A stretch of DNA of 34,602 bases. Origin: Gammaproteobacteria bacterium. Its GTDB lineage: Bacteria; Pseudomonadota; Gammaproteobacteria; Thiotrichales; Thiotrichaceae. The first letter of the stretch is position 1; the number at the start of each line of letters is the position of its first letter. The notes under the pieces are model-generated. The model saw only the letters and a list, made by a program, of their open reading frames with translations. It had not been told where the DNA came from and searched no databases. Made by a program: the position numbers and the translations under genes. Of the stretch, positions 7,857-22,840 are shown piece after piece. The DNA lies in NCBI GenBank assembly GCA_018822845.1, contig JAHJJD010000118.1:1-34602 (forward strand). Reading direction: 5' to 3'.

Positions 7857-9452
7857 TCAGATTTGCCGTACTTGAATATTCAGGGTCTGGATACGGTAGG
7901 CAATTTGTCGTGGCGTCATGTTGAGCAAGCGGGCGGCTTTGGCTTGCACCCAGCCCGCTTCTTCCAGTGCGGCTATGACGCGCTCGCGTTCATCAAGGTC
8001 AGGGGCATTCAAATCCGTTTTCGATCCCCCCGTTCCCGTAGAGACGCAAAATCTTGCGTCTCTACCGCCACCACCACTTTCCAGCGGGAAATGGCTGTCC
8101 AGACCGCTGAGGCGGATTACCTGCGCGTCAATGTGCCCGTCGGGGCTGAGGATGGCGGCGCGTTCCATGCAGTTTTCCAGCTCACGCACGTTACCCGGCC
8201 AGCTGTGGTGCATCAGGGCGCGGATGGCGCTGTCACCAATGTCCAGCGGTCTGCCTTGTTTCTGGCTGATCTTGTTGACCAAGAAACGGGTGAGGTCGGG
8301 CACGTCTTCCAGCCGTTCCCGTAGCGGCGGCATCATGATGGGCATGACGTTGAGGCGGTAATACAGGTCTTCACGGAAATCGCCTGCGCGCACCTCTTCT
8401 TCCAGATTGCGGTTGGTGGCGGCGATCACGCGCACATCGACTTGCAGGGTTTTGCTGCCGCCGACGCGCTCGAATTCACCTTCCTGCAATACCCGCAACA
8501 GTTTGGCCTGAAAAGTGGGGGTAATTTCGCCGATTTCGTCGAGGAACAGCGTGCCGCCGTCGGCTTGCTCGAAACGCCCCTTGCGCTGGCTGACCGCACC
8601 GGTGAAAGCGCCTTTTTCATGGCCGAACAGTTCCGATTCCAGCAAATTGTCTGGTAGCGCGGCGCAGTTGAGCTTGATGAAAGCGCTGTTGGCGCGCGGC
8701 GAATGGTAGTGGATGGCATTGGCAATCAACTCCTTGCCAGTGCCGGATTCACCCCGGATCAGCACCGTGGTGTTCCATTTCGCCACCTGCCGGGCTTGCT
8801 CGAATACGGTCTGCATTACGCGGGTGTGGCCGATCAGGTTGCCGAAACCGTGGTCGCCCTTGACCTTGCGGCGCAGCGAGTCACGTTCCTTTTGCAACTC
8901 TTGCTTGTCGCTGGCAACCTGGTTGGCGAGTACCACGTTCTGGCCGATCAGGTTGCCGACCATTTCCAGGAAGCGGCGGCGTTCGGCCAGCAGATGCAGT
9001 TCCGCCGGAGGTTGCGCAGTCAGCACACCGACGATTTCATCGCCCCGTGCGCGGATCGGTACGGCAATCAATGGCAGGGCAGGGTTGTAAACACCCAGCC
9101 GGTCGAGGAAGCGCGGCTCATCGGCCAGTTTGCGGATGATCAGTGGTTTATCCATCTCGATCACCAGCCCCATGATGCCCTCGCCGGAACGGTAGCGCAC
9201 GTTTTCCATGGTTGGCTTGTCTTGCCGGTGCAGCTCGCACAGCAGCAGGTCGCCACTGGCTTCGTCCAGCAGGCTGACCATGCCGTGTTCCAGTTGGCCC
9301 TGTTCATGCAGCACACGCAATACTTCACGCAAGCTTTCCTGCAAATTCAGGGAACGGTTGAGTACCTTGCTGACTTCATAGATGCAGGCCAGCTCGTCTT
9401 CCAGCAGGGTGAGGGTCTGTTCCAGTTGTGCGGAATCATGCCGGTCGGTCAT
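7857..9452 (-). CDS. nifA: NifA, sigma-54-dependent activator of nitrogen fixation genes
   Basis: Bacterial enhancer-binding protein that activates nif promoters with RpoN. The 531-residue product has an N-terminal GAF domain (about 20-180), an AAA+ sigma-54 interaction domain with Walker A GESGTGKE (234-241), the sigma-54-contacting loop GAFTGA (281-286) and Walker [10 protein letters not shown] (301-309), and a C-terminal Fis-type helix-turn-helix (about 489-527) ending in the NifA-typical [12 protein letters not shown]. The paired-cysteine linker of oxygen-sensitive NifA is absent, fitting control by NifL. Odd: residues 463-472 in the linker before the HTH are encoded by a perfect palindromic repeat (8038-8065). 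The start overlaps nifL by four bases (ATGA), giving coupled translation. Confidence 0.95.
8038..8065. repeat. Palindromic repeat GTAGAGACGC inside nifA
   Basis: GTAGAGACGC (8038-8047) and GCGTCTCTAC (8056-8065) are perfect inverted arms around AAAATCTT. Similar TAGAGACGC palindromes are well known as dispersed repeats in cyanobacteria and other bacteria. Here it is read in frame as [10 protein letters not shown] in the NifA interdomain linker, flanked by glycine codons, without breaking the gene. Confidence 0.8.
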
Positions 9453-11020
9453 TCCATGGCCTCGCTGGTGTATTTGATCGGGAGGTTGATCAGGATGCGG
9501 CAGCCGTTGGCGTAATCAGGGTCGATGCGGATGCCGCCGTTGTGGCGGTTGACGATTTCCTGCGCCATGCACAGGCCCATGCCTGCCTTGCCACGCCCAC
9601 GTTTCCAGCTACTGTGGAATGGCTCAAATACCTTGAGGCGCTGGTTGGCAGGGATGCCAATGCCGTTGTCGGTGATTTCCACCCAGATGAATTCGTCTTT
9701 CACGCTGGTATGCAGGCGCAATTCCGGGTTCCTGCGTCCGGCTTCTTCCAGTGACAGCAGGGCGTTGTCGAGCAGGTAGTGGAACATGCGCCGCAATGAG
9801 GCTTCGCTGCCGGTGATGGTGGGCAGGACAGGTTCCGGTTTCCAGTCCACCACAACGCCAGTGGATAGCAGACGGTCGGTGGAAATGACCAGCAAGTCCT
9901 TGAGGATCTGGTTGATATTGACCAGGAAACGGCGTTCCTGTTCGGCTTTGGGCAGCGCCTTGCGCATGGCGTCAATGGCGCGCTGGGAGGAGTCCAGTAC
10001 TTGCCGCAGGATGGGGTAGAGCGCTTCCGGCGAGGATTGCGGCATGGCGAGCGCGGCCTGGATGACGTTGATTGGCGTTTCCAGTTGGAAGATCGCGCCG
10101 GACAGGGTTTCGCGGACACTCTGGGTCAGTTCCTGTTCCGCCATCTGTACTTTGAGTTGCTGGAGGCGGGAGCGTTCGGCTTCGGCCTTGCGGGTGGTGA
10201 TGTCGGTAGCAACCAGTAACAGGTAGTGGCCATTTTCATCGCCAGTGTTGAAATAGCTTTGCGCGGCGTGGTCCAACTCTTTCACATGGATGCCGGACAC
10301 GGTGAACCAGCATTCCGAGCCATTGGGGGCATCGAAGCGCACCTGTGCGTCGTTGAAGCCACCGAACAGGTTGCCATCCAGCCGGTCAGCGAGTGCTTCC
10401 ATGAACAGGTGGGCAGGTTCGGTTGCGCCAAAACCGGTTTTCAGTTGTTTGTAAGCCTGGTTGTCGAGCAGCACGTTGCGTTCGCTGTCCAGCAGCACCA
10501 CGATGGTGGGGGCGAGGTCAAGGATGGTTTCCGACAGGGCTTTCTGGTGCTTGAGTTCCTGTTCCAGTTGGTGAAGGGTGGAAATGTCACGGTGCATGCC
10601 GAGGAAATTGGTGATGCGCTGATTGGCATCCAGTACCGGGGCGATACTGAGTTCGGCGAGATAGCTTTTCCCTGCTTTGGTGCGGTTGACCAGGGTACCA
10701 CGCCATACTTTGCCGCTCTGGATGCTGCGCCACAGATCGCGGTAAACCTCAATCGGGGTGGTTTTGCAGGACAGCACGGATTCGTTCTGTCCGCAAATTT
10801 CATTGCGGGTGTAGCCGGTCAGCGACTCGAAGGCAGTATTGACGTAAAGGATATTGGCGCGGGTGTCGGTGATGGAAATCGCCACCGGAGCCTGTTCCAC
10901 CGTTTCGAGGATGGCTTGCAGCGACAGGCCGGGGGCGACATGCTCGAAACCGGGAATGCCGGAAATATCTGCTTGTAGTCCGCTGAAAGGCGTTGCATAG
11001 GTCTGGATCGGTTTTGGCAT
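9449..11020 (-). CDS. nifL: NifL, redox- and nitrogen-sensing antiactivator of NifA
   Basis: NifL binds NifA and blocks it when oxygen or fixed nitrogen is present. The 523-residue product has PAS1 (about 33-150, the FAD-binding redox sensor in Azotobacter NifL), PAS2 (about 165-275), a central coiled helix region, and a GHKL ATPase-like domain (about 405-520) with N-box LLDNALLSLEEAG, G1 DNGIGIP (451-457) and G2 GKAGMGLCMAQEI. The usual HisKA histidine is missing: the matching block is IFQLETPINVI (310-320), with Phe where His would be, so phosphotransfer is not expected and action should be by protein contact. It is the first gene of nifL-nifA and has its own sigma-54 promoter (11058-11073). 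The ribosome binding site before ATG 11020 is weak. Confidence 0.95.
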   Translation of the reverse strand: MPKPIQTYATPFSGLQADISGIPGFEHVAPGLSLQAILETVEQAPVAISITDTRANILYVNTAFESLTGYTRNEICGQNESVLSCKTTPIEVYRDLWRSIQSGKVWRGTLVNRTKAGKSYLAELSIAPVLDANQRITNFLGMHRDISTLHQLEQELKHQKALSETILDLAPTIVVLLDSERNVLLDNQAYKQLKTGFGATEPAHLFMEALADRLDGNLFGGFNDAQVRFDAPNGSECWFTVSGIHVKELDHAAQSYFNTGDENGHYLLLVATDITTRKAEAERSRLQQLKVQMAEQELTQSVRETLSGAIFQLETPINVIQAALAMPQSSPEALYPILRQVLDSSQRAIDAMRKALPKAEQERRFLVNINQILKDLLVISTDRLLSTGVVVDWKPEPVLPTITGSEASLRRMFHYLLDNALLSLEEAGRRNPELRLHTSVKDEFIWVEITDNGIGIPANQRLKVFEPFHSSWKRGRGKAGMGLCMAQEIVNRHNGGIRIDPDYANGCRILINLPIKYTSEAME

Positions 11021-11073: not shown

Positions 11074-11080
11074 TGGGAGG

Positions 11081-11272: not shown

Positions 11273-11288
11273 TGTAACAAACCTCACA
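11273..11288. promoter_or_regulatory. NifA upstream activator sequence of rnfA
   Basis: TGTAACAAACCTCACA is an exact TGT-N10-ACA NifA-binding site. It is centred about 120 bases before the predicted rnfA transcription start, the usual position. Being palindromic, it could also serve nifL, about 230 bases away. Confidence 0.85.
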
Positions 11289-11301
11289 GCCCCAACCACG
11301 A

Positions 11302-11322
11302 TGTTGTAAACCACACCAATAA
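11302..11322. promoter_or_regulatory. Second, imperfect NifA site with conserved ACACCAATAA box (rnfA)
   Basis: TGT (11302-11304)-N10-ACC (11315-11317) lies 29 bases after the perfect site and overlaps ACACCAATAA (11313-11322). The same arrangement is present before rnfC at 18810-18830. The conservation suggests a functional second half-strength site. Confidence 0.5.
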
Positions 11323-11374
11323 ACAAATTATAAAAGCACCGTTAATTCAATGAATTGTTTGCAATTCCTGTGAC

Positions 11375-11390
11375 TGGCACGCTCCCTGCA
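11375..11390 (+). promoter_or_regulatory. Sigma-54 promoter of rnfAB
   Basis: TGGCACGCTCCCTGCA has GG at 11376-11377 and GC at 11388-11389 with exactly ten bases between. Transcription is expected near 11401, about 26 bases before the rnfA start. Confidence 0.9.
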
Positions 11391-11426
11391 TCACTCCCTC
11401 CACTGACACATTTCAGGGAATGCGCA

Positions 11427-12005
11427 ATGGAATACTTCATGCTCCTGCTGGGAACCGTACTGGTGAATAACGTGGTGCTGGTCAAGTTCCTCGGCCTGTG
11501 CCCGTTCATGGGCGTTTCCAAACAGATTGACTCTGCCATCGGCATGGGCATGGCGACCACCTTCGTGCTGACGCTGGCGACGGTGGCGGGCTGGATGTTG
11601 GAACACTGGGTGCTGAAACCGCTGGATCTTGGTTTCCTGCGCATCCTGTCCTTCATTCTGGTGATTGCGGCGACGGTGCAGTTTACCGAGATGGTGATCA
11701 AGAAAATCTCACCCGCACTGTATCAGGTGCTGGGGATTTTCCTGCCACTGATAACGACCAACTGCGCGGTGCTGGGCGTGGCGCTGCTGAATATCCAGGA
11801 GCAGCACAGTTTCGTGCAGACGCTGTTGTACGGCTTCGGTTCGGCGGTCGGGTTCACGCTGGTGCTGGTGATTTTTGCCGGGTTGCGTGAACGGCTGGCG
11901 CTGGCGCAGGTTCCGGCTGCTTTCAGTGGTTTGCCGATTGCGTTCGTGGTGGCCGGGCTGTTGTCGCTGGCCTTCATGGGCTTTGCCGGTCTGGCGGCAC
12001 ATTGA
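11427..12005 (+). CDS. rnfA: RnfA, electron transport complex subunit
   Basis: Integral membrane subunit of the Rnf complex, which couples an ion gradient to electron flow between NADH and ferredoxin. In diazotrophs it provides low-potential electrons for nitrogenase. The 192-residue product starts [29 protein letters not shown]-like (positions 1-29) and has about six membrane helices. It includes the conserved [17 protein letters not shown] segment, whose Cys is thought to help ligate the membrane iron-sulfur centre shared with RnfE. Length is exactly that of the family. ATG 11427 follows AGGGAA at 11415-11420; in-frame codons back to 11355 lie across the sigma-54 promoter and are rejected. 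It is the first gene of a NifA-controlled transcript. Confidence 0.95.
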
Positions 12006-12026
12006 GGCATTGAAAGGAGCGTTGCG

Positions 12027-12560
12027 ATGAGTGCGATTTTGACATTGATGACTCTGGGTCTGGTGCTGGGCGGTTTGCTGGGCGTGGCGGCGCGTTATTT
12101 GCGGGTGGAAGGCAACCCCTTGCAGGAAGAGATTGAAACGCTGCTGCCCGGTTCGCAGTGCGGGCAATGCGGCTACCCCGGTTGTAGCCCGCTGGCGGAA
12201 GCAGTCGCCAATGGGCAAGCGCCCGTCACTGCTTGCCCGCCCGGTGGCAAGGCGCTGGCGGAAATGCTGGCCGCCAAACTTGGCGTCAGCATCGACCTTT
12301 CCGGCGTGGAAGACAAAGGCCCGACCATTGCCTATGTGCATGAAAACCTGTGCATTGGCTGCACCAAGTGTTTCAAGCGTTGCCCGACCGACGCGATCAT
12401 GGGTGGGCCGAAGCAGATTCATGCAGTGTTTGCGGATGCCTGCACCGGCTGTGAGAAATGTGCGGAAGTGTGTCCGACTGAGTGTATTGAGATGCGTCCG
12501 CAGACTGCGACCTTGCAGACCTGGTATTGGCCGAATCCGGCTGTGGGTAGTATCGCCTGA
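12027..12560 (+). CDS. rnfB: RnfB, iron-sulfur subunit
   Basis: Membrane-anchored ferredoxin-like subunit that passes electrons between the complex and soluble ferredoxin or flavodoxin. The 177-residue product has an N-terminal hydrophobic helix (about 3-25), a 4Fe-4S motif of the Fes type (QCGQCGYPGC, about residues 44-53), and two ferredoxin motifs, CIGCTKCFKRCP and CTGCEKCAEVCP. The start is preceded by AAAGGAG. It lies 21 bases after rnfA. In most genomes rnfC follows directly, but here a 6-kb accessory block intervenes. Confidence 0.95.
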   Translation: MSAILTLMTLGLVLGGLLGVAARYLRVEGNPLQEEIETLLPGSQCGQCGYPGCSPLAEAVANGQAPVTACPPGGKALAEMLAAKLGVSIDLSGVEDKGPTIAYVHENLCIGCTKCFKRCPTDAIMGGPKQIHAVFADACTGCEKCAEVCPTECIEMRPQTATLQTWYWPNPAVGSIA

Positions 12561-12570
12561 GCCATGCTAC

Positions 12571-12597
12571 AATCTGGCAAGGTGCATCCGCCAGATT
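12571..12597. terminator. Hairpin after rnfB
   Basis: AATCTGGC (12571-12578) pairs perfectly with GCCAGATT (12590-12597). No T-run follows, so termination would be incomplete at best, and transcripts from the rnfA promoter may read into the next gene. Confidence 0.4.
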
Positions 12598-12610
12598 GAG
12601 GCTTGAGTGA

Positions 12611-14401
12611 ATGATCACATTTCCCTACGGTATCAGCGATTTCCACCATATCCGCAGCAAAAGCATGTTGTATGTGGATCGTACTGCCTGCATCCCTGCG
12701 CTGGAAACAGCGGGACAGCAATTGTTATTCCTGCGCCCACGCCGTTTTGGGAAATCCCTGTTGTTGTCGATGCTGGCGAATTATTACGACATCAACAACG
12801 CCGATGAATTTGCGTGGCTGTTTGGTGATCTTGCCGGGGGCGCCGACCCTACGCCGGAACATAACCAGTATTTGATCCTGCAATGGGATTTTTCCAAAGT
12901 ATCGGCGCAAGGTGATGTCGGCACGATTACCCAAAACCTGTTCGATCACGTCAATGCCTCCATTGAGGGGTTTTTGCAGCGCTATCAGGATCGGCTGAAA
13001 TTTCCGGTCACTATCCACGCGGAAAATGCCATTGCCTCGTTTGAATCCTTGGGGAATAGCGTCAAAAACAGTGGTCAGCAGTTGTATTTGCTGATCGACG
13101 AATACGACAATTTTGCCAACGAAGTGTTGATGCAGACCCGCCCTGACGAGGCGCGTTACAAAACCTTGCTGCATGGCGAAGGCATTTTGAAAACCCTGTT
13201 CAAAGCCATCAAGGGCGGTGCTTCTGAGGGCAAGGTTGGGCGGGTATTCATCACTGGGGTATCGCCCGTGGTAATGAGCGACATGACCAGCGGCTATAAC
13301 GTCGCCACCAGCATTTATCTGGATAATGAATTCAACAGCTTGTGCGGGTTGACCACCAGCGAATTGCAGGGGTTGGTGGAAACGGTGACGGCGCAATGCC
13401 AGCAACCCGCTGCAACTGCCTCCACCACGCTTGAAACCATGCGAGTGTTTTATAACGGCTACCGTTTTTGCTACGACACCACGCGGGAACGGGTTTATAA
13501 CCCCACGCTGTGTTTCTACTTTTTGCGCCATTTCCAGAAAAACTGCCAGCCGCCGGAGCAAATTCTGGATGGCAATCTGGCGATGGATGCCGGGAAAATC
13601 CATTACATTGCCTCCCAACCCGGTGGTGATGCGGTTATCCAGCGGGCACTGGATGAGCAACACGTTTTGCTGGTGGATACGCTGGAAGAAAAGTTTGGGG
13701 TGGAAACCCTGCAAACCCTCCAGCAAGGCGAACGCTTTATGATTTCCCTGCTGTATTTCTTCGGGGTGCTGACCATTACTGGGCGCGGGGCGATTGGTGA
13801 ACTGGCGTTCGGCGTGCCGAATCTGGTGATCCGCCGTTTGTATCTGGAGGAGTTGCGCAAACGGGCTTTGCCAGCTCCGCAGGATACCGATACGGTGCGG
13901 CATCTGGCGGGGGCGTTCTATCAATCGGCAGATTTGCAGCCGCTGGTGGATTTCATGGAAAGCAAATACTTCGCGGTGTTCAACAACCGGGATTACCGTT
14001 GGAGCAATGAACTCACCATCAAGACGGCGTTTCTGACGCTGCTGTTCAATGACACCTATTACATCATGGATTCGGAAACGGCTTTGCAGCGTCGTTATTC
14101 TGATTTGACCCTGATCGTGCGCCCCAATATGCGCCAGTATCCGGCGTTGTTGGATATGGTGCTGGAGTTTAAATACCTTGGGTTGAAGGAGTTGGGGGTG
14201 AGTGCGGAACAGGTTCGGGGAATGTCGCGGGCAGAACTGCAACAGCTTCCGCTGGTGGTGACGGCGTTGCAGGATGCTACGCAGCAATTGCAGCAATACC
14301 GTGCGGTGCTGGTGGAAAAGTACCGTGAGCCGCAGCGGTTGCGGTGTTTGGCGGTGGTGGCGTTGGGGTTTGAGCGGTTGGTGTGGGAAATGTTGGGCTA
14401 A
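12611..14401 (+). CDS. AAA-ATPase-like / PD-(D/E)XK nuclease-like protein
   Basis: Member of a large, poorly understood family pairing an N-terminal AAA-ATPase-like domain with a C-terminal PD-(D/E)XK-like domain (Pfam AAA-ATPase_like and PDDEXK_9 types), often mobile and multi-copy in bacterial genomes. The 596-residue product begins MITFPYGISDFHHIRSK and carries the family's P-loop block FLRPRRFGKSLLLSML (40-55), a Walker B-like LYLLIDEYDNF (about 158-168) and a nuclease-core block DMVLEFKYLG near residue 515. Cellular role is unknown. It starts 50 bases after rnfB without a clear promoter. Its stop codon overlaps the stop of the opposite-strand CHAT gene (14398-14401). Codon use looks AT-richer and less regular than in rnf, consistent with acquisition. 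Confidence 0.85.
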   Translation: MITFPYGISDFHHIRSKSMLYVDRTACIPALETAGQQLLFLRPRRFGKSLLLSMLANYYDINNADEFAWLFGDLAGGADPTPEHNQYLILQWDFSKVSAQGDVGTITQNLFDHVNASIEGFLQRYQDRLKFPVTIHAENAIASFESLGNSVKNSGQQLYLLIDEYDNFANEVLMQTRPDEARYKTLLHGEGILKTLFKAIKGGASEGKVGRVFITGVSPVVMSDMTSGYNVATSIYLDNEFNSLCGLTTSELQGLVETVTAQCQQPAATASTTLETMRVFYNGYRFCYDTTRERVYNPTLCFYFLRHFQKNCQPPEQILDGNLAMDAGKIHYIASQPGGDAVIQRALDEQHVLLVDTLEEKFGVETLQTLQQGERFMISLLYFFGVLTITGRGAIGELAFGVPNLVIRRLYLEELRKRALPAPQDTDTVRHLAGAFYQSADLQPLVDFMESKYFAVFNNRDYRWSNELTIKTAFLTLLFNDTYYIMDSETALQRRYSDLTLIVRPNMRQYPALLDMVLEFKYLGLKELGVSAEQVRGMSRAELQQLPLVVTALQDATQQLQQYRAVLVEKYREPQRLRCLAVVALGFERLVWEMLG

Positions 14402-17400
14402 ATCCCAGCCTCCCCCAACCCCTCCAACAACAAAACCAACTCCGCCGCATACTGATAGTGCAGCCCCTCATCCTCCGCCAAAGCCAAATCCCGCTCCCCG
14501 GCAATAACCGCTTGCAGCTTGTGCAGGAAGTTTTTGTCCAAATCCCCGCGTTCAAGCAACTGTCCGATCACCTGCTCAATCTCCACCGTATCCCCCTGCT
14601 GTATCGCCTGTCCCACCGCCAAAGCCAAACGTCCCGCCCAATGATGATTCTCCCCACCATCCCGCCGATACGCCAGATACGCCGCCAGTGCCTGTTGCCA
14701 TGCCTCGCGTGCGGCTGGGGGATTGCCGCTGGCTTGTTCCAGATCGTGCAGGATGTCCCATGTTTTCCACAGTTCAGCCGCATGACCAAATGCCTGATCG
14801 CACTCAATCGCCCGTAGCAGTTCCGGGCGGGCTTCGTCATAGCGTTGGAGTTTGATCAAGACATTTGCGATGTTGCTACGCACAACACCTTCATAGCGTA
14901 AATCCCCCAATGCCACATACATACCCGCTGCCTGCCGATAAAAACTCACTACCTGTTCCGGGCGATTCCAAGCATTATAAAGATTGCCCAGTTCAGTCAG
15001 GCTATTCGCTTCACCCGCCTTATTACCTTGCTGACTTTCAATTGACAGGGACTGCCGATACGCCTGCTCAGCCTGTGCAAAGTCGCCTGCCTTCCTGTGC
15101 GTCATCCCGATCTGATGCCAAGCCGTTGCCACTGCACCCGGTTCATCCAGTTGCTGGAACAGTGCCAGTGCTTGCTGATAGCCTTGCAGGGCATCGGCAT
15201 AGCGTTTTTGCAATAGACGTACCGAAGCAAGCTGGATTTTGCCTACCGCAACATCACGCAAAGCATCACGTTTTTCATCTAATCCAATCGCATCCTCATA
15301 AGCTGCCGCCGCTGCTTCCAGTTGCCCCAAGGCTTGCAGGCAATCGCCCTGTTCCGTCAAGGCTGCTGAAGCCATACTTGCCCCACTTTCCCCCAAGGCT
15401 TCAAAACGCCGTTGTGCTTCCTGCAAATAGGGTAAGGCTTGCGCGGCTGCTCCGCCTGTTTCCAATACCCGCCCCACATTGAAATGAGCCATCGCCAGAT
15501 CGTAATCCGCCCCGGCATACGCTTGTTCCCCAGCCTGCTGGCACTGCTGGAACAAGGCTTGGGCTGCCTGAAAAGCGGCTTGCAGATCACCCTGCTGCAA
15601 TAGCCGATCAAAATTCTGATCTTCATTTTGATAACGGGCATGACTCCACTCGCCCAAAGCCTGCGCTGCCTGCTTGCGCCATGCCACCACCTGTGCCAGT
15701 GCCTGCGGTTGATGCAGGTTTGCCAGCACAGACTCGACATTGCCTGCTTTGCTAGCCACCACTTCCGCTGCCACGCTTCCGACTTGTAAATCCGCCACCA
15801 GCGTTTGCAAATAAGCCATCAGGTTGGGCAGTTCCAGTTGGGTGAGTTGTGCTGCCAGCTTGGTATCTTTGAATCGCTGCTGATAGAGAAAATCCACCAG
15901 TTGCCCCATCACTTCCCGCCAGCGTTGCCGATAATCCTCGCGCTGTTGCGCTGTCAGCCTCAAATCCAGCGTCGCAGGCAAAGCGGGATCAAGGCGGATG
16001 TAGCTGTAGTCGCCGATGGGTTGTGCCAGACCGACTTCGATCAGTGCTTGGATGATTTCAACGACTTGGTCAGTATCTACACCCAACACATATGCCAAGC
16101 CTTCCAACTTGCTGCCATCCTGAAACACTGCCAGCCCCGCAATCTGCTCGCGCACTTCCGGCGATAGCCGCCGCAGGGAGAGTTCCACGCTGGCGAACAG
16201 CGACAGTTCGCGCTGCCCCGGATGGCGTTGTTCCAGCTCCTGCATGATCGCCCGCACATTCGCAGTGGTCGCCGTTACTCCGCGCTGTGCCAGTTCTCCT
16301 GCCAGCAGTACCAACGCCCGCGCATGGCAACCGACCGAACGCACCAGATCGTCCACTTCCTGCGGCGTATTGCCCTGATCATCATGGCGCAGGCGTAAAC
16401 CTTCGTTATTCATCACCTGCATCACCAACGCCTTGGCATCTGTTACGCTCAATGCGCCGAGTTCAATATCGCAGGCTTGGTGGTTGAATGGAGCGGGAAG
16501 CGGTTCGCGGGTTGTGAATAGTAAACGAGTTTGCGGCGAAGATTTCAGTAACCTATCAGCTAGAGCTAACACAGGCTCAGTATTCCCGACATCTGCCAGC
16601 AATGATTCCATATTGTCGATGACTAGCAGGGTGCGCTGGGTTTGCAACACTTGCATGATCGGCTGCAAAGCTGCATCCAGATCATCGCCGTATTCCGCCA
16701 CGCTGTATTTTTCATTCACCAACTGTTTGCCGAGAATGTCCACAATGGCACGTTCATGGGTGTAAGTTTCCACACTCACAAATGCACAACGCTCAAAACG
16801 GCGGCATTGCACTAACCAGCGAGCCAGTTCTACTGCCACGGCTGTTTTACCGATGCCTCCCATACCCCGAATGACAGCATAAGACTGCCTGTCCAGTAGG
16901 CGTTCGAGTTTTAGCAGGTCACGGCTACGCCCGATGAAGGTGTGTTTGGGCGTTTCCGGTAAATCACCAAGCAACAATTCCGGTTCAGTTTCCTCGGGCA
17001 GTTGTAGTGCATGGCTGAATAAGCGTGGGTCATCTTCTCGTTGATACAGCACTGGCACAAACCAATCCTGCATTTGCAACGTTCCTGCCCCGGCAATATT
17101 GATACGGTCGGTGGATTGCATCAGGGCTTGTCTACCCGCTAATACGGCTGACCCAATCCGTTGCCCTTCTGCCAGTTGTTGGTAAAACGTGCTGACAAAT
17201 CGCCGCGCCGTTTCCACCAATACGCTATGGCTCATGGCAATGACGGAAGCCACACCCGCTTGCAACAAGGCTGCCGCAACCGATGCATTAGGGTCGGTAT
17301 GCTCTTGTTTCTCTGCTTCACTTTGCCCGGTTTGGCAGGCTTCCAGAAATACCAATGGCAGGGGGAATTCGGTTAGTAGTGCTGCCAAATCATCAGCGTA

Positions 17401-18270
17401 AATTCGCTTCACAAACTCAGGCAGTAATTTCTTATTGTCCAGCGGATGTTCAAAACACAATGCGCCCCTGCCTGTCTTGGTATCAAATACCCCATGCCCA
17501 TCAAAATGCAGTACATGAAAGGGATTGCCATCCGCTTGTGCCTGACGAAGTTCAGTTTTCAGTTGCTGAAATGTCGGTGGGTTTACACGCACCAGTTCCA
17601 CCCGTTTACCCAAACTTTCTACTGCCTCCACCAAGGGTTTGATACTGGCGCGGTGGTCAATGTAACCTGCTTGAGAAGGGCGCGGACTAACTGCCAAGAC
17701 ACGAAGAACCGTCTGGTTTTGATCGTATGGAGTAACGGAGGGTGTATCTAACCTTGGCAGATTACGCCGAATTCGCACAGGTAGATTATGGGTAAGCAAG
17801 TATTGGTCATGGTAGCGTAACAGTTCCCAAGGAAACCCTAACAAACGGCTTGCGGCTGTTTTGGATTCTGGTGTATCGCTCAGTTGCACATGCAGGCTAA
17901 AGACAGGTTCATGGTTGGATGATGCGTCAAGCCATTGTTGTACAACAGGTTGTGCGGTAGGTGAAGCCGTTATCGCTGTCAGCAGTTTGTCGCCCCATTG
18001 CGGAAAATACCGTTCAATCCGTTCTGCCCGTTCTTTGAATAAGCCGACAGGCCAGATGTAGTAGCTTTCCAGATACCACTTGATGTCATCCGCTTCCAGC
18101 AAGCCGATGGGCGCAACAAACGGAAAATGCTCACTTTGGGCAACAGCCATACCATTTTGGGCAAACACCATCTGGGCAGCAGCCGCTACCCGTTCGGTGT
18201 TGTCATCCCGCATCATCAAGCGCGGATTAGAGAAGGTTAAACGTAGTTCCGCGCTTGATGTGGTGTTCAT
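14398..18270 (-). CDS. CHAT protease / NB-ARC ATPase / TPR protein (STAND-type)
   Basis: A 1290-residue multidomain protein with the architecture of prokaryotic immune or cell-death switches. N-terminal region of unknown fold (1-120); CHAT caspase-like protease (about 120-410) with the FPWELL lead-in (146-151), catalytic-His block HFDGHG (His 259) and catalytic-Cys block LEACQTG (Cys 312), both intact; NB-ARC STAND ATPase (about 440-760) with Walker A GMGGIGKT (469-476) and Walker B TLLVIDN (about 547-553); a winged-helix-like segment; then a long TPR array (about 880-1240) full of AxxxYxxAL-type repeats, the probable sensor. By analogy to characterised CHAT and STAND proteins, ligand binding at the TPRs would trigger assembly and protease activation; the trigger and target are unknown. 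It follows the small gene at 18276-18674 by five bases, so the two form one operon. Confidence 0.9.
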   Translation of the reverse strand: MNTTSSAELRLTFSNPRLMMRDDNTERVAAAAQMVFAQNGMAVAQSEHFPFVAPIGLLEADDIKWYLESYYIWPVGLFKERAERIERYFPQWGDKLLTAITASPTAQPVVQQWLDASSNHEPVFSLHVQLSDTPESKTAASRLLGFPWELLRYHDQYLLTHNLPVRIRRNLPRLDTPSVTPYDQNQTVLRVLAVSPRPSQAGYIDHRASIKPLVEAVESLGKRVELVRVNPPTFQQLKTELRQAQADGNPFHVLHFDGHGVFDTKTGRGALCFEHPLDNKKLLPEFVKRIYADDLAALLTEFPLPLVFLEACQTGQSEAEKQEHTDPNASVAAALLQAGVASVIAMSHSVLVETARRFVSTFYQQLAEGQRIGSAVLAGRQALMQSTDRINIAGAGTLQMQDWFVPVLYQREDDPRLFSHALQLPEETEPELLLGDLPETPKHTFIGRSRDLLKLERLLDRQSYAVIRGMGGIGKTAVAVELARWLVQCRRFERCAFVSVETYTHERAIVDILGKQLVNEKYSVAEYGDDLDAALQPIMQVLQTQRTLLVIDNMESLLADVGNTEPVLALADRLLKSSPQTRLLFTTREPLPAPFNHQACDIELGALSVTDAKALVMQVMNNEGLRLRHDDQGNTPQEVDDLVRSVGCHARALVLLAGELAQRGVTATTANVRAIMQELEQRHPGQRELSLFASVELSLRRLSPEVREQIAGLAVFQDGSKLEGLAYVLGVDTDQVVEIIQALIEVGLAQPIGDYSYIRLDPALPATLDLRLTAQQREDYRQRWREVMGQLVDFLYQQRFKDTKLAAQLTQLELPNLMAYLQTLVADLQVGSVAAEVVASKAGNVESVLANLHQPQALAQVVAWRKQAAQALGEWSHARYQNEDQNFDRLLQQGDLQAAFQAAQALFQQCQQAGEQAYAGADYDLAMAHFNVGRVLETGGAAAQALPYLQEAQRRFEALGESGASMASAALTEQGDCLQALGQLEAAAAAYEDAIGLDEKRDALRDVAVGKIQLASVRLLQKRYADALQGYQQALALFQQLDEPGAVATAWHQIGMTHRKAGDFAQAEQAYRQSLSIESQQGNKAGEANSLTELGNLYNAWNRPEQVVSFYRQAAGMYVALGDLRYEGVVRSNIANVLIKLQRYDEARPELLRAIECDQAFGHAAELWKTWDILHDLEQASGNPPAAREAWQQALAAYLAYRRDGGENHHWAGRLALAVGQAIQQGDTVEIEQVIGQLLERGDLDKNFLHKLQAVIAGERDLALAEDEGLHYQYAAELVLLLEGLGEAGI

Positions 18271-18275
18271 GGGGA

Positions 18276-18674
18276 TTATTCCTGTACTTGCATGGCTTTG
18301 ATGATGTCATCCAGATTTTCGACTTTGACCGGGTAGGGGATGCCGTTGACTTCCAACCAGATGTATTCGTGGTCACGGGTCAGGATAGGTGTTGCCCAAG
18401 CAACTAATTCTTCCAGTTTCTTCCTGGTTTCGAGTAAGCCATGAGCAGTATCTATTGCCAGTTTGACACCAGATAACATCAATAGAATTTGGCTGAAATC
18501 AGAACCAAACTCGATACCTCTACTGTTCGCATCAGTGGCATTTAACGCTGATGTATCGGCAGGAGTCGCCTCTACCTGCACTTGCCACGCAGTTTCTAAG
18601 TATTGCTGGAGTTCATAAGCGGTATCGGCTGCGGAGTCTGGTGAGCCTTGGACAATGAAACGGATGTTGGACAT
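18276..18674 (-). CDS. Small EACC1-like partner of the CHAT-STAND protein
   Basis: A 132-residue protein encoded just upstream of the CHAT gene. It starts MSNIRFIVQGSPDSAADTAY and shows a short beta-strand, an amphipathic helix (ELQQYLE), a central hydrophobic stretch (FSQILLMLSGVKLAI), and a C-terminal strand-helix unit (YIWLEVNGIPYPVKV then LDDIIKAM). This layout resembles the effector-associated constant component 1 (EACC1) proteins described beside bacterial protease and STAND effectors, but identity is inferred from size, context and pattern only. The CHAT start codon lies five bases past its stop. A -10-like TATAGT reads on the minus strand at 18718-18723. It may adapt or restrain the effector. 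Confidence 0.6.
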   Translation of the reverse strand: MSNIRFIVQGSPDSAADTAYELQQYLETAWQVQVEATPADTSALNATDANSRGIEFGSDFSQILLMLSGVKLAIDTAHGLLETRKKLEELVAWATPILTRDHEYIWLEVNGIPYPVKVENLDDIIKAMQVQE

Positions 18675-18781
18675 GCTGTACCTCGAAGATAGCCCAGTTG
18701 AGACGTGATTTTAAGCAACTATAGCAAATTATTATTCACAAATAGACAAATCCTTATGATCAAATGGTTGGCTTCAATCAA

Positions 18782-18797
18782 TGTCGCAAACCCTACA
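18782..18797. promoter_or_regulatory. NifA upstream activator sequence of rnfC
   Basis: TGTCGCAAACCCTACA is an exact TGT-N10-ACA site. Its centre is about 119 bases before the predicted rnfC transcription start, the same distance as the site before rnfA. Confidence 0.85.
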
Positions 18798-18809
18798 TCC
18801 CCCACCGCT

Positions 18810-18830
18810 TGTCACAAACAACACCAATAA
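18810..18830. promoter_or_regulatory. Second, imperfect NifA site with ACACCAATAA box (rnfC)
   Basis: TGT (18810-18812)-N10-ACC (18823-18825) overlaps ACACCAATAA (18821-18830). It lies 28 bases after the perfect site, matching the arrangement at 11302-11322. Confidence 0.5.
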
Positions 18831-18881
18831 TCATCCCGTAAAAAACCTAATTATTCAGCCACCTACAAACCCGGAAAACTC

Positions 18882-18897
18882 TGGCACATTCCCTGCA
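18882..18897 (+). promoter_or_regulatory. Sigma-54 promoter of rnfCDGEH
   Basis: TGGCACATTCCCTGCA has GG at 18883-18884 and GC at 18895-18896 with ten bases between, nearly identical to the rnfA promoter. The expected start is near 18908, some 24 bases before ATG 18932. Confidence 0.9.
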
Positions 18898-18931: not shown

Positions 18932-20437
18932 ATGGGATTCCTAGCTACCCACAAAATCACCAAACTGTTCCGCATCCGTGGCGGCGTACATCCGCACGAC
19001 CGCAAGACCCTGAGCGCCAGCCAGCCGATCGAAGATTTGCCGATGCCTGAGCTGTTGCACATCCCCTTGCAGCAGCACATCGGCGCGGCGGCGAAACCGG
19101 CGGTCAAGCGTGGCGACCACGTGCTCAAGGGGCAGTTGCTGGCCAACAGTCAGGGGATGATTTCCGCACCCGTGCACGCGCCCACCTCCGGGCGTATCGT
19201 CGGGGTAGGGCATTACCCGGCGCATCACGCCTCCGGCCTGTCGGTGCACACCATCACCCTGCAACCGGACGGCAAGGATGAGTGGATAGCACTCGACCCG
19301 GTAGCCGACCCGTTCGCGCTGGAGCCTGCCGAAATTGCCGCCCGCGTCGCTGCCGCCGGAATTGTCGGCATGGGTGGCGCAACCTTCCCCTCTGCCGTCA
19401 AACTCAACCTGCGCAACCGCTACCAACTGCACACGCTGGTCATCAACGGCGCGGAATGCGAACCCTACCTCACCTGTGATGACCGCCTGATGCGCGAATA
19501 CGCTGCCGACACCATCGACGGCATCCGCATCATGGCTTATGCGCTGGGTGTGGAAAACATTGCCATCGGCATCGAAAACAACAAGCCGGAGGCGCAGGCC
19601 GCGATGCGCGCAGCGGCGCAAGCTTTCCCCAATATTCAGGTGATCGGCTTGCCGATGCGCTACCCGATGGGTTCGGAAAAGCATCTGGTGCAAACCCTCA
19701 CCGGGCTGGAAACGCCTGCACGCGGCCTGACCGCTGACATCGGTATCGTGGTACACAACCCAGCCACTGCGCTGGCGGTACATGACGCGCTGCGTGCAGG
19801 CAAGCCGCTGGTGTCGCGCGTCGTCACCGTTTCCGGCGGGGCAATTTCGCAGCCGCGCAACCTACGAGTGCTGCTGGGAACCAAGGTGCAATACCTGATC
19901 GACCATTGCGGCGGTTTCAATACAGAACCTGCCCGCCTGATCAGCGGCGGGCCGATGATGGGCAATGTGCTGCCCGACACGCGCGTGCCGACTGTGAAAG
20001 GTGGCAACGGTATTCTGGCCCTCACCGCCAAAGAGGTTTCCGAAAATCAGGAGTCGCCCTGCATCCGCTGCGCCAGTTGCGTAAAGGCTTGCCCGTGCGG
20101 CTTGCTGCCGCTGGAAATGGCCGCCAACGCCCGCGCGGGCAATCTCGACGCCGTCACCAAACTGGGGCTGATGGATTGCATCGCCTGTGGTTCGTGTTCC
20201 TACGTTTGCCCATCGCACATTCCGCTAGTGCAGTATTTCAACTACGCCAAAGGCGAACTGGCCAACCGCCAGCGTGCCAAGCACAAGCAGGACGAAACCA
20301 AGCGCCTGATCGAACAACGCAACGCCCGCATGGAAGCGCAGGCCAAAGCCAAGAAGGAAATGATGGAACGCCGCAAACGTGAAGCCGCCGCCAAAAAAGC
20401 CGCAGCGGCGAAAAAAGCAGAGGGGGTGAGCGCATGA
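18932..20437 (+). CDS. rnfC: RnfC, NADH-binding iron-sulfur subunit
   Basis: Peripheral subunit that binds NADH and FMN and carries two 4Fe-4S clusters, exchanging electrons with the pyridine nucleotide pool. The 501-residue product has the RnfC N-terminal GGVHPHDRK block, the Rossmann-like GIVGMGGATFPSAVKL region for nucleotide and flavin binding, and cluster motifs CIRCASCVKACP (377-388) and CIACGSCSYVCP (416-427). The C-terminus is a short Lys/Ala/Glu-rich helix; the long repetitive tail of the E. coli homologue RsxC is missing, as usual for nif-type RnfC. It is the first gene of rnfCDGEH, overlaps rnfD by four bases (ATGA), and is read from its own NifA/sigma-54 promoter. Confidence 0.95.
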   Translation: MGFLATHKITKLFRIRGGVHPHDRKTLSASQPIEDLPMPELLHIPLQQHIGAAAKPAVKRGDHVLKGQLLANSQGMISAPVHAPTSGRIVGVGHYPAHHASGLSVHTITLQPDGKDEWIALDPVADPFALEPAEIAARVAAAGIVGMGGATFPSAVKLNLRNRYQLHTLVINGAECEPYLTCDDRLMREYAADTIDGIRIMAYALGVENIAIGIENNKPEAQAAMRAAAQAFPNIQVIGLPMRYPMGSEKHLVQTLTGLETPARGLTADIGIVVHNPATALAVHDALRAGKPLVSRVVTVSGGAISQPRNLRVLLGTKVQYLIDHCGGFNTEPARLISGGPMMGNVLPDTRVPTVKGGNGILALTAKEVSENQESPCIRCASCVKACPCGLLPLEMAANARAGNLDAVTKLGLMDCIACGSCSYVCPSHIPLVQYFNYAKGELANRQRAKHKQDETKRLIEQRNARMEAQAKAKKEMMERRKREAAAKKAAAAKKAEGVSA

Positions 20438-21507
20438 GCCTGATGATCAGTAGCCCGCATACCCATTCCGGCAAGAGCGTACAGAACACCATGCTGCTGG
20501 TGATGCTGGCGCTGGCCCCTGCGACGGCGTTTGGCCTGTACCTGTTCGGCTGGCCCGCCATCAACCTGTTTCTGGCTACCATTCTCGGCTGCCTGCTGTT
20601 TGAAGCGATCGGCCTGAAAATCATGGGCAAGCCGGTCGGCAAGTATCTGTCCGACGGTTCCGCGATCCTCACCGGCTGGTTGCTGGCGATGAGTCTGCCA
20701 CCGTCTGCGCCGTGGTGGATCGGGCTGCTGGGTGCATTCCTCGCCATTATTATCGGCAAGCAGGTATTTGGCGGTATCGGCCAGAACCTGTTCAATCCGG
20801 CCATGGTGGCGCGGGTGGCGCTGCTGATTTCGTTTCCGCTGGAAATGACCACATGGATGCATCCGGCTCCACTGTTGTCCGCCAATGCACCGGATTTCAT
20901 GCAGGGTTTGCAGATTACCTTTGGCGGCTGGGTGCCGGATGGTTATACGGGGGCGACTACGCTGGGACATATCCGTACTGAAACCGGGCAGGGACATGCG
21001 CTTTCCTCGCTGGGTGATATGGCTTCCAGTTCCAGCATGGCAATGGGCTGGATGGGTGGCAGCATGGGCGAAACTTCCGCGCTGTTGCTACTGGGGGGCG
21101 GTTTGTTGCTGCTGTGGAAACGGATTATCAGTTGGCATATTCCGCTGTCGATGATCGGCACGCTGTTGTTGCTGGCGGGGATCATGCACGCAGTCAACCC
21201 GGAAAAATTCCCCGGCATTGAGGTGCATCTGCTGGCGGGGGCAACCTTGCTGGGCGCGTTCTTCATCGCCACCGATCTGGTGACTTCGCCAGTGTCGCCT
21301 GCCGGACAACTGCTGTTTGGCGCGGGCTGCGGGCTGCTGGTGTATGTGATCCGCACCTGGGCGGGCTACCCGGAAGGCATGGCTTTCGCCGTGCTGCTGA
21401 TGAATGCGCTCACACCCTTGATTGACCACTACCTGCGTCCGCGCATTTACGGGCGTGACCGCAAAGGTCAGCCACTCAACTACGCCAGCGGGGAGGGCAA
21501 GTCATGA
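20434..21507 (+). CDS. rnfD: RnfD, membrane flavoprotein subunit
   Basis: Integral membrane subunit related to NqrB that carries a covalently bound FMN and takes part in ion translocation. The 357-residue product has about nine to ten hydrophobic segments, and the flavinylation-type block YTGATTLG near residue 172, in which a threonine is the usual FMN attachment site. The GKQVFGGIGQNLFNPAMVAR block is highly typical. It overlaps rnfC and rnfG by four bases each, showing tight translational coupling in the operon. Confidence 0.95.
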   Translation: MSLMISSPHTHSGKSVQNTMLLVMLALAPATAFGLYLFGWPAINLFLATILGCLLFEAIGLKIMGKPVGKYLSDGSAILTGWLLAMSLPPSAPWWIGLLGAFLAIIIGKQVFGGIGQNLFNPAMVARVALLISFPLEMTTWMHPAPLLSANAPDFMQGLQITFGGWVPDGYTGATTLGHIRTETGQGHALSSLGDMASSSSMAMGWMGGSMGETSALLLLGGGLLLLWKRIISWHIPLSMIGTLLLLAGIMHAVNPEKFPGIEVHLLAGATLLGAFFIATDLVTSPVSPAGQLLFGAGCGLLVYVIRTWAGYPEGMAFAVLLMNALTPLIDHYLRPRIYGRDRKGQPLNYASGEGKS

Positions 21508-22151
21508 GTACCGAAACCGAAACGGCTGCCAAAACCGGGCTGGACAAATGGCTGGACAAAATTCCCTATCAGGCTGCACTGCTGGGTGTGTGTGCTGCGA
21601 TTGCCGCTGCGCTGCTGGTCGGGGTCGACAATGCCACCCGCGAACCGATTGCCCAGCGCAAGATGGAAGACCTGCAAGTGTCACTGGCGCAGGTAGTTCC
21701 CGATAATTTGCACGACAACAACATGGTGGCGAAACCACTGCTGCTGACGGATGGTGATGGCGATGAAGTAAAGGTTTATCAGGGAACCAAAGCGGGTGTT
21801 GTCACCGCGCTGGTGTGGGAAACCGTGGGACTGGGCTATGCCGGTGAAATCCGCACCATTATCGCACTCGACCCGGCAGGCAAAATCCTCGGCACGCGCG
21901 TGCTTTCCCACAAGGAAACCCCCGGCCTCGGCGACAAGATTGAGGAGGCCAAGGATGACTGGATTCTCAAATTCACCGGCCTGTCACTGGGCAACCCACC
22001 CGCAGAGCAGTGGGCGGTGAAAAAGGATGGCGGCCAATTCGACCAGTTCAGCGGTGCAACCATTACCCCGCGTGCGGTGGTGCAAAGCATCCGCGAAGCC
22101 CTGCACTTTTTCGCGGCGCACAAGGCCGACATGCTGGAGGTAAAACCATGA
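21504..22151 (+). CDS. rnfG: RnfG, periplasmic flavoprotein subunit
   Basis: Subunit with one N-terminal membrane helix (about 22-42) and a periplasmic FMN domain. The 215-residue product contains the covalent-flavin motif SGATITPRAVV (about 187-197), in which the second Thr after SGA-type sequence carries FMN in characterised RnfG/NqrC proteins. The GYAGEIRTIIALD and SHKETPGLGDK blocks are family hallmarks. It overlaps rnfD and rnfE by four bases each. Confidence 0.95.
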   Translation: MSTETETAAKTGLDKWLDKIPYQAALLGVCAAIAAALLVGVDNATREPIAQRKMEDLQVSLAQVVPDNLHDNNMVAKPLLLTDGDGDEVKVYQGTKAGVVTALVWETVGLGYAGEIRTIIALDPAGKILGTRVLSHKETPGLGDKIEEAKDDWILKFTGLSLGNPPAEQWAVKKDGGQFDQFSGATITPRAVVQSIREALHFFAAHKADMLEVKP

Positions 22152-22840
22152 GCATCAGCTACAAACGCATTGCCAGCGATGGCATCTGGGATAACAACGT
22201 GGTGTTTGCGCAGGGGCTGGCCTTGTGCCCGCTGCTGGCTGTCACCAGTACCGCCACCAACGGGCTGGGCATGGGTCTGGCGAGTACGGCAGTGCTGGTG
22301 ATGTCCAACCTGCTGGTTTCGGTGATCCGCCGGATTGTCAGCCCGGCGGTGCGGATTCCGGTTTACATCACCCTGATCGCCACACTGGTGACGCTGGTGG
22401 ACATGATCCTGAATGCCTGGGCGCACGAGCTCTACAAGGTGCTGGGGCTGTTCATCGCGCTGATCGTGGTCAATTGCGCGATTCTGGGGCGGGCGGAAGC
22501 GTTTGCCTCCAAAAATTCGCCGGTTCCTGCCGTATTCGACGGCCTGATGATGGGGCTGGGTTTCACGCTGGCGCTGGTGATGCTGGGCGGAATGCGTGAA
22601 ATCCTCGGCAGTGGAACCCTGTTTGCCAGCGCTTCGTTGTTGCTGGGCAAGGCGTTTTCCTTCATGGAATTGACCATTATTCCCGGCTATCGCGGTTTCC
22701 TGTTGATGATCCTGCCTGCGGGCGGCTTCATGGCACTGGGTTTCCTGCTGGCCGGTAAACGTGTGCTCGACGCGAAACTGGCGGCGTGGGCGCTTGGCCG
22801 GGCGTCCGGCGCGACAAAAATGGCGGAGGATGCAGCATGA
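22148..22840 (+). CDS. rnfE: RnfE, electron transport complex subunit
   Basis: Integral membrane subunit paralogous to RnfA; the two pack as an inverted pair around a membrane iron-sulfur centre. The 230-residue product starts MSISYKRIASDGIWDNNVVF and has about six helices with the LFIALIVVNCAILGRAEAFA segment matching the conserved Cys region of RnfA. The ATG at 22148 overlaps the rnfG stop (ATGA); an in-frame extension back to 22010 would run through rnfG and is rejected. Confidence 0.95.
   Translation: MSISYKRIASDGIWDNNVVFAQGLALCPLLAVTSTATNGLGMGLASTAVLVMSNLLVSVIRRIVSPAVRIPVYITLIATLVTLVDMILNAWAHELYKVLGLFIALIVVNCAILGRAEAFASKNSPVPAVFDGLMMGLGFTLALVMLGGMREILGSGTLFASASLLLGKAFSFMELTIIPGYRGFLLMILPAGGFMALGFLLAGKRVLDAKLAAWALGRASGATKMAEDAA

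What the first reader, a model, noticed from the sequence alone, without database searches (positions are those of the whole stretch)
12611..18674. A CHAT-STAND immune-like locus inserted inside a nitrogen-fixation rnf operon
rnfABCDGEH is normally one uninterrupted operon in diazotrophs. Here rnfAB and rnfCDGEH are separated by 6.3 kb carrying an AAA/PD-(D/E)XK gene and a two-gene CHAT-NB-ARC-TPR unit. The flanking rnf genes are intact. Seen directly: gene order and domains. Inferred: the block was acquired later, and it may profit from nif regulation or guard the electron-transfer machinery.
Basis: partly seen in the sequence, partly recalled or inferred. Interest (0 to 1): 0.75.

Follow-up and report, generated by a model that had tools for sequence, protein, structure and literature searches.

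The report
Mobile bacterial immune cassette, swapped sensors
Between two halves of a nitrogen-fixation gene cluster in a filamentous sulfur bacterium sits a gene cassette resembling an immune receptor; its presumed killing half is nearly identical in four species while its sensing half differs strongly between some of them, so it looks like a natural case of bacteria swapping immune sensors.

Summary
In detail: rnfAB and rnfC onward are separated by an AAA-ATPase_like/PD-(D/E)XK gene (+) and a two-gene unit (-), a 132-aa protein and a 1290-aa CHAT-NB-ARC-TPR protein. The block is acquired: among four species its shell has dS 0.12-0.39, against pair medians of 1.35 to saturation for genes near the housekeeping rnf locus, and a relative without this rnf cluster has the same three genes elsewhere. 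But rnfC has a NifA/sigma54-type promoter of its own in 7 of 7 split loci, and nothing found supports nif control or guarding. The unexpected result lies inside the block. The 3' end of the AAA gene, the CHAT/NBD half and the small gene form a constant shell; the ARC-TPR sensor half has been exchanged at a junction just after an NB-ARC motif. The window's sensor matches TIR-CHAT-NB-ARC-TPR paralogs (dS 0.25 to the closest, where the effector halves are near or beyond saturation) and not the sensors of two sister cassettes (34-38% identity). Best reading: a horizontally spreading NLR-like defence cassette that changes specificity by sensor replacement, a new variant of a known kind. Antiphage function is inferred, not shown.

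The parts
7857..9452 (-). nifA
   Evidence: TIGR01817 E 7.9e-206
9449..11020 (-). nifL
   Evidence: TIGR02938 E 1.5e-154
11273..11390 (+). NifA/sigma54-type promoter of rnfA: UAS TGT-N10-ACA 11273-11288, -24/-12 11375-11390
   Evidence: pattern searches; counts in the window are not above chance, position is the argument
11427..12005 (+). rnfA
   Evidence: TIGR01943 E 1.4e-86
12027..12560 (+). rnfB
   Evidence: TIGR01944 E 8.8e-64
12561..18727 (.). the cassette: left homology edge at or a few bases before the rnfB stop, right edge at TATAGCAA
   Evidence: alignment of edges with G001, G002, G003, coordinates
12565..12598 (+). extended -10-like TGCTACAAT and inverted repeat CAATCTGGC/GCCAGATTG upstream of the AAA gene
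   Evidence: promoter read by eye (inference); inverted repeat also I16
12611..14401 (+). AAA-ATPase_like + PD-(D/E)XK gene; its 3' end (about 13958-14401) belongs to the constant shell
   Evidence: 3' end dS 0.12-0.20 over six pairs, for G001 on its 3' remnant
14398..16443 (-). exchanged sensor half of the CHAT gene: ARC part of NB-ARC plus TPR repeats
16443..16515 (-). junction zone, residues about 586-610, just after the LLFTTR motif (583-588)
   Evidence: codon-window identity, motif places
16516..18270 (-). constant half of the CHAT gene: CHAT protease domain (HFDGHG 255, EACQTG 310) and NBD (GMGGIGKT 469, LLVIDN 548)
   Evidence: catalytic roles of the motifs are recalled
18276..18674 (-). 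132-aa partner gene, constant (88-95% identity to four other copies)
18719..18727 (-). extended -10-like TTGCTATAG at the right edge, reading into the partner gene
   Evidence: by eye; inference
18782..18897 (+). NifA/sigma54-type promoter of rnfC: UAS 18782-18797, -24/-12 18882-18897
   Evidence: homologous to the rnfA promoter, local score 43 against a maximum of 21 in 500 shuffles
18932..20437 (+). rnfC
   Evidence: TIGR01945 E 1.9e-180
20434..22151 (+). rnfD, rnfG
22148..23112 (+). rnfE and rnfH-like reading frames (names by position and by eye; family search not run on them)

Best explanation
A horizontally spreading, NLR-like abortive defence cassette with a constant effector shell and an exchangeable sensor. 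Shown: the three-gene unit occurs at two sites and its partner gene at a third; the shell (3' end of the AAA gene, CHAT protease, NBD half of NB-ARC, partner protein) is recent and similar among species, while the ARC-TPR half has a different history and, in the window, matches the sensor pool of TIR-CHAT-NB-ARC-TPR paralogs. Inferred: the TPR half binds an invader cue, NB-ARC then assembles, the CHAT protease is released and cleaves its target, possibly with or on the 132-aa partner, and the cell dies or stops growing. Sensor replacement by recombination just behind the NBD changes specificity without changing the killing part. The rnf site is a permissive gap: rnfAB and rnfC onward each have a NifA-type promoter, so nitrogen-fixation expression can survive.
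For: Same order, orientation and convergent stop overlap in the window and G003, at different sites. dS of the shell: CHAT half 0.18-0.24 (six pairs), AAA 3' end 0.12-0.20 (six pairs) and partner 0.15-0.39 (ten pairs, G019 included), against pair medians of 1.35-1.96 or saturation for 7-13 genes near the housekeeping rnf locus and 0.64-1.26 for nif/rnf of the window against G001 and G002. Sensor identity of the window: 85/83/81% to the TIR paralogs of G012/G007/G003, 75% to the G003 cassette, 38% and 34% to the G002 and G001 cassettes. Window against G012 TIR paralog: constant part (150-575) dS 3.18, sensor (700-1290) dS 0.25. The N-half tree holds the four cassettes together at 100/100; joining the window with three TIR rows there is rejected, p-AU 0.003. 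Sensor omega 0.39-0.46 in the five window pairs with dS under 0.5 (0.19-0.28 in the more distant ones) against 0.11-0.15 where it can be measured in the effector half within a type. Full-length frames with CHAT, NB-ARC and TPR matches in window, G001, G002 and G003.
Against: On the sensor half the AU test does not reject keeping the cassettes together (p 0.28 for four, 0.35 for window plus G003); that tree is star-like with long branches, and the case rests on dS contrasts and the sharp identity step. recQ and ksgA beside the TIR-CHAT locus give lower yardsticks than the other genes: window against others 0.41-0.80, and recQ of G001 against G003 is 0.24, no higher than the shell (0.23); I read these genes as exchanged with that locus, which is not proven. 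No activity is known. The partner has no family and no significant fold match. No integrase, transposase or target duplication explains transfer. The G019 copy is broken by a stop codon, so the cassette is dispensable there. PADLOC gives only weak or partial matches. The window assembly has 130 contigs; a misjoin at the near-identical ARC stretch is conceivable in it alone.
Confidence: 0.7

Rival explanations
1. The cassette is part of the nif programme: it is induced with nitrogen fixation or guards the Rnf complex.
For: It sits between two NifA/sigma54-type promoters in 3 of 11 nif-linked loci. The AAA gene lies on the strand of rnfAB and could be read through from their promoter.
Against: The same genes lie at another site in G003, which has no close match to this rnf cluster, and the partner gene at a third site in G019. 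The AAA gene has its own leader with a -10-like element, shared with G003; the CHAT pair reads away from rnfC.
Confidence: 0.05
2. Ordinary divergence: one cassette whose TPR half simply evolves faster than its effector half, with no exchange.
For: Sensor omega is 3-4 times that of the effector half in close pairs, and AU tests on the sensor half do not reject cassette monophyly.
Against: Synonymous sites contradict it: CHAT half dS 0.2 with sensor dS saturated between window and G002 or G001, and the reverse between window and TIR paralogs. The step falls within about 25 codons.
Confidence: 0.08
3. Same molecular machine, other purpose: kin or strain recognition in filamentous bacteria, as with fungal NB-ARC-TPR incompatibility genes, instead of phage defence.
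For: Replaceable sensor and constant killer fit allorecognition; Thiothrix strains are described as filamentous (start of the abstract of PMC8570282); a passage of PMC10907252 proposes this alternative for related systems.
Against: No contact or delivery partner identified; nothing tests it.
Confidence: 0.15
4. Assembly artefact: reads of the TIR paralog joined to the cassette at the near-identical ARC stretch.
For: The window genome is in 130 contigs and its TIR paralog seems itself split over contigs C82 and C44.
Against: G003 is a single contig and G001 has 4 contigs; both hold cassette and TIR paralog with different sensors (72% and 31% identity). The window genome has a distinct second sensor on C44 (69%).
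Confidence: 0.04

Closest known systems
Bacterial STAND/NLR-like defence proteins (Avs, bNACHT), effector - STAND NTPase - variable C-terminal sensor
   Same: Three-part order with N-terminal protease, NB-ARC and TPR sensor; the general scheme, with TPR sensors binding phage proteins, was read in passages of PMC10907252.
   Different: NB-ARC core, CHAT effector and a separate 5' partner gene; PADLOC Avs4 only E 0.0023 over part of the protein; sensor replaced while the rest stays similar.
EACC1-caspase two-gene conflict system (Kaur et al. 2020, PMC7159879, passages read)
   Same: Small 5' gene described as constant, 3' gene with N-terminal caspase-superfamily protease, diverse 3' component, and occurrence mostly in multicellular prokaryotes.
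   Different: The partner does not match the EACC1 model at E<=1, and the own genome has no match. A likeness in the order of strands and helices is recalled, not tested.
DGR-diversified sensors of multicellular bacteria (PMC10907252, passages read)
   Same: Conflict proteins with CHAT and TIR domains and diversified C-terminal sensors.
   Different: There, targeted point changes by a retroelement in lectin domains; here, replacement of a 2-kb ARC-TPR segment.
Type III-E TPR-CHAT (Craspase; PMC9729208, search listing only)
   Same: TPR and CHAT in one protein.
   Different: Here CHAT is N-terminal and joined to the TPRs by NB-ARC; no CRISPR gene was recognised among the window genes that were scanned.
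rnf beside nifLA in Azotobacter and other diazotrophs (recalled; PMC2820453 search listing only)
   Same: rnf beside nifL-nifA under NifA-type promoters.
   Different: Here split into rnfAB and rnfC onward, each with its own promoter.

Membership tests
STAND/NLR-like immune protein | N-terminal effector, central NB-ARC/NACHT with Walker motifs, C-terminal repeats | tested here: met
STAND/NLR-like immune protein | triggers a response to an invader | not testable with these tools
   needs phage assays
Avs (AVAST) | full match to an Avs model | tested here: not met
   Avs4 E 0.0023, residues 446-591 only
EACC1 two-gene system | 5' gene matches EACC1 (PF19953) | tested here: not met
   no family at E<=1, no match in own genome (its 14 control genomes gave none either), 0 of 398 genomes over cut-off, 4 with weak partial matches
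EACC1 two-gene system | 5' protein has one transmembrane helix between alpha+beta ends | tested here: inconclusive
   strand-helix-strand, helix 77-100, two strands, helix; mean pLDDT 75.6 from 5 similar sequences; membrane insertion not tested
EACC1 two-gene system | 3' gene with N-terminal caspase-superfamily protease | tested here: met
   CHAT 143-388; that CHAT belongs to that superfamily is recalled
DGR target | reverse transcriptase and template repeat nearby | not tested
   no specific search was made
Transposon or integrative element | target-site duplication, terminal repeats, integrase or transposase | tested here: inconclusive
   no duplication seen by eye; no repeat joining the edges in the repeat list, which is capped; none of the three cassette genes matches an integrase or transposase family

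The most novel reading that the evidence does not exclude
The AAA/PD-(D/E)XK gene is the exchange engine: its nuclease cuts at or near its own 3' end, which overlaps the stop codon of the receptor gene, and so drives gene conversion that copies new ARC-TPR sensors from paralogs into the cassette. The three genes would then be a dedicated receptor-editing system, a bacterial counterpart of cassette switching. Not excluded: the AAA 3' end belongs to the constant shell (dS 0.12-0.20) where the AAA 5' part has diverged in G003 (dS 0.98), and in G001 only that 3' end persists directly beside the receptor. Against it: TIR-CHAT paralogs vary their sensors with no AAA gene in the fetched flanks (L080-L090), and in the 16 of 20 AAA regions fully visible the gene stands, single or in tandem, between other genes with no CHAT gene recognised.
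Probability: 0.07. Interest if true: 0.85.

Novelty: new variant of a known kind. Interest (0 to 1): 0.6.

Why it matters
How immune receptors of the NLR type gain new specificities is an open question in bacteria, plants, fungi and animals. Here the same effector half (dS about 0.2) carries at least three strongly different sensor halves (30-38% identical) in related species, and one sensor family is shared by two different effector heads (TIR-CHAT, and CHAT plus partner). That is a ready-made set of natural chimeras: exchange the halves at the natural junction, and ask which half carries phage specificity. It also suggests that a nif-linked rnf cluster can be opened at rnfB/rnfC without losing NifA control, because the second half has a promoter of its own.

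Tried and rejected
Composition as a mark of insertion: GC of the block equals the rest of the window; only nif/rnf stand out, though codon usage of the block is somewhat unusual. The count of sigma54 or UAS motifs in the window is not above chance (4 against 3.05 expected, 38 of 100 shuffles reach it; 13 against 9.05, 15 of 100); I rely on position and conservation. Promoter twins are clear in the window (43 against shuffle maximum 21); the other six loci gave 33, 32.5, 20.5, 17, 27.5 and 36.5 (G002, G001, G006, G014, G013, G005), and shuffles were run for the window only.

Yardsticks of divergence: mqo (dS 1.9 to saturated) agrees with the genes near the housekeeping rnf locus. recQ and ksgA beside the TIR-CHAT locus are much closer (recQ 0.49-0.80, ksgA 0.41-0.75 from the window) and do not agree with those; see evidence against. 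The genes are reciprocal best reading frames of 150 or more codons with over 45% identity and 70% coverage, not annotated genes.

Forty-residue periodicity of variable sensor positions: not significant (0.156 against 0.215 for the 95% shuffle). Phage or plasmid carriage: none for the partner in viral contigs or plasmids, none for the CHAT protein in viral contigs; the block's DNA gave one 3% match, an AAA gene on a Thiothrix fructosivorans plasmid; the GenBank phage collection was not searched. Partner fold: best Foldseek E 0.026, not significant. EACC1: see membership. Papers on the AAA gene family: 5 papers hold either domain name, none read, none on its function by title.

Full report
What is there. 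The window is contig C114 of a 4.0-Mb genome in 130 contigs. Its genus has 16 genomes held, the own one included; the contig of one relative (G002:C27) has the length of the public record Thiothrix sp. STA_22 NZ_JAQTLS010000027.1 (48,634 bases), so I take the genus to be Thiothrix. nifA and nifL read leftwards, rnfAB rightwards, then the block, then rnfC onward. Models confirm NifA, NifL, RnfA, RnfB and RnfC. The block is an AAA-ATPase_like gene with a C-terminal PD-(D/E)XK match (+), convergent with a CHAT-NB-ARC-TPR gene (-) whose stop overlaps that of the AAA gene, and a 132-aa gene just upstream of the CHAT gene. The CHAT His and Cys motifs and the NB-ARC P-loop and Walker B motifs are present in the window's protein (their roles are recalled).

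The junction in relatives. Eleven genomes of the genus carry the nif-linked rnfC at 89% identity or more; a twelfth, G004, keeps fragments only. State between rnfB and rnfC: cassette in 3 (window, G001, G002), a lone AAA gene in G006, a UPF0175/DUF3368 pair in G014, rnfAB far from rnfCDGE in G013 and G005, contiguous in G009, G010, G012 and G015. A second, 60%-identical rnf copy in G002 is contiguous, as are 19 of 19 other rnf loci. In all 7 split loci a NifA-type upstream site and a -24/-12 element stand before rnfC (by eye); in the 4 contiguous loci the genes nearly touch and there is no room for one. In the window the rnfC promoter aligns with the rnfA promoter (score 43, maximum 21 in 500 shuffles). 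On a tree of seven nif/rnf proteins the contiguous loci nest among split ones, so the split may be the older state here; the root rests on one long branch and is weak.

The block travels as a unit. In G003, a single-contig genome whose best rnfC and rnfB matches are only 43% and 48% identical, the three genes lie in the same order and orientation, with the same stop overlap, between genes that read as galU-like and der-like (by eye), with an XisH gene beside them. In G019, of another genus of the family, the partner gene and a stop-broken CHAT reading frame lie at a contig end with other neighbours. The partner was found in 4 of 16 genomes of the genus and 5 of 63 of the family. Of 369 genomes drawn from the class, 4 had matches: the window itself, G019 and two weak partial ones. 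One scan for close relatives in one genome for each of 84,980 species gave 2 loci, both named Thiothrix; records near the window's genome may be left out there.

Constant shell, replaced sensor. Sliding nucleotide identity (150-base steps) between the window and G002 or G001 is 86-97%, mostly above 90%, over the partner gene, the CHAT and NBD half and the AAA 3' end, and 31-64% over 14451-16400. For G001 the match at the AAA end is a separate 3' remnant, beside a complete AAA gene that is 64% identical to the window's and 92% to that of G006. dS over six pairs among window, G001, G002 and G003: CHAT half 0.18-0.24, AAA 3' end 0.12-0.20, partner 0.20-0.39. Genes near the housekeeping rnf locus have medians of 1.74 (9 genes, window-G001), 1.35 (13, window-G002), saturation (11, window-G003), 1.49 (8, G001-G002), 1.96 (7, G001-G003) and saturation (13, G002-G003). 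So the shell most likely spread among species after they parted. Two genes beside the TIR-CHAT locus disagree: recQ dS is 0.49 for window-G001 and window-G003 and 0.24 for G001-G003, and ksgA is 0.41 for window-G001.

The sensor half tells another story. Ten genomes carry a full-length paralog with an N-terminal TIR (TIR confirmed by Pfam for the G012 copy only); the window genome's own seems split over two contigs. In 7 of the 10 recQ lies in the fetched flank and in 5 of the 10 ksgA. The effector half is 91-97% identical among eight of the ten, 70-73% to the other two, and 51-54% to the cassette type. The window's sensor is 85, 83 and 81% identical to those of the G012, G007 and G003 TIR paralogs, 75% to the G003 cassette, but 38 and 34% to the G002 and G001 cassettes. 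Against the G012 paralog the constant part has dS 3.18 and the sensor (700-1290) 0.25. The change falls at residues 586-610, behind LLFTTR (583-588) and before a region to about 715 that is almost identical between window and four TIR paralogs compared codon by codon. G002 and G001 sensors still hold TPR and NB-ARC matches. For the G002 sensor the best foreign match over most of its length in 63 genomes of the family is 39% identical; its first 113 residues are 59% identical to the broken G019 copy.

Against this, the AU test on the sensor half does not reject grouping the cassettes (p 0.28 and 0.35), while on the effector half grouping the window with three TIR rows is rejected (p 0.003). The sensor tree is star-like with long branches. 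I therefore rest the exchange on synonymous distances and the sharp step, not on trees.

How it most likely works. Inferred from the family: TPR binds a cue, NB-ARC assembles, CHAT cuts, the cell stops or dies; the partner is a cofactor, substrate or inhibitor. The sensor evolves under weaker constraint (omega 0.39-0.46 in close pairs against 0.11-0.15 in the effector half), as expected of a recognition surface under changing demand. Both edges of the unit carry extended -10-like elements (by eye), so it probably brings its own promoters. The AAA gene belongs to a dispersed family (1 to 16 matches a genome in 15 of 16 genomes, fragments and distant members included), and in 5 of the listings visible its stop overlaps that of a convergent neighbour by 3 bases; it may be a passenger, the carrier, or, boldly, the exchange engine.

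Literature. Kaur et al. (PMC7159879) and a 2021 follow-up (PMC8195603), both read in passages, describe small constant components beside caspase-type proteins with variable parts; the window's partner fails the EACC1 model. PMC10907252 (passages) describes retroelement diversification of such sensors, and duplication plus recombination of target genes. PMC10532065 (passages) reports variable nif content in Thiothrix. Searches listed no paper that by title or the start of its abstract reports sensor replacement in a CHAT-NB-ARC-TPR cassette or this Thiothrix locus; only listed papers were seen (10 of 16,425), and most subscription journals and bioRxiv preprints are not covered.

Noticed in passing
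window 68-140: Group II intron catalytic-domain match (Rfam RF00029, 47.9 bits) at the contig start; perhaps a repeated element that ended the assembly.
   Followed up: no
window 34434-34602: 70-bp tandem repeat, 2.4 copies, at the contig end, with TGTCTGTGCGAAGACA units.
   Followed up: no
L043 (G006) 8801-14800: nifL-nifA tandemly duplicated beside rnf; the first nifA match is partial.
   Followed up: no
L049 (G004) 13121-14158: Only a nifA fragment overlapping an rnfC fragment remains: a decayed nif-rnf cluster.
   Followed up: no
L041 (G014) 5577-6310: UPF0175 plus DUF3368 pair, a toxin-antitoxin-like module (that reading is recalled), occupies the rnfB-rnfC gap in place of the cassette.
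   Followed up: partly
L077 (G003) 13153-13569: XisH gene (PF08814, E 2.1e-45) beside the relocated cassette.
   Followed up: no
L108-L127: Dispersed AAA/PD-(D/E)XK genes sit between other genes, 5 of the visible listings with stop codons overlapping a convergent neighbour by 3 bases; a possible mobile family.
   Followed up: partly
L048 (G001) 13961-15401: rnfC reads as two overlapping pieces in different frames: broken or a sequencing error.
   Followed up: no
L079 (G005) 7523-9768: nifL, rnfA and rnfB are each in several frames; broken or base-call errors in that genome.
   Followed up: no
L080-L089: recQ and ksgA beside the TIR-CHAT locus are much closer between some species than other genes (G003-G001 recQ dS 0.24 against a median of 1.96), which suggests that this locus is exchanged by recombination in its flanks.
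   Followed up: partly
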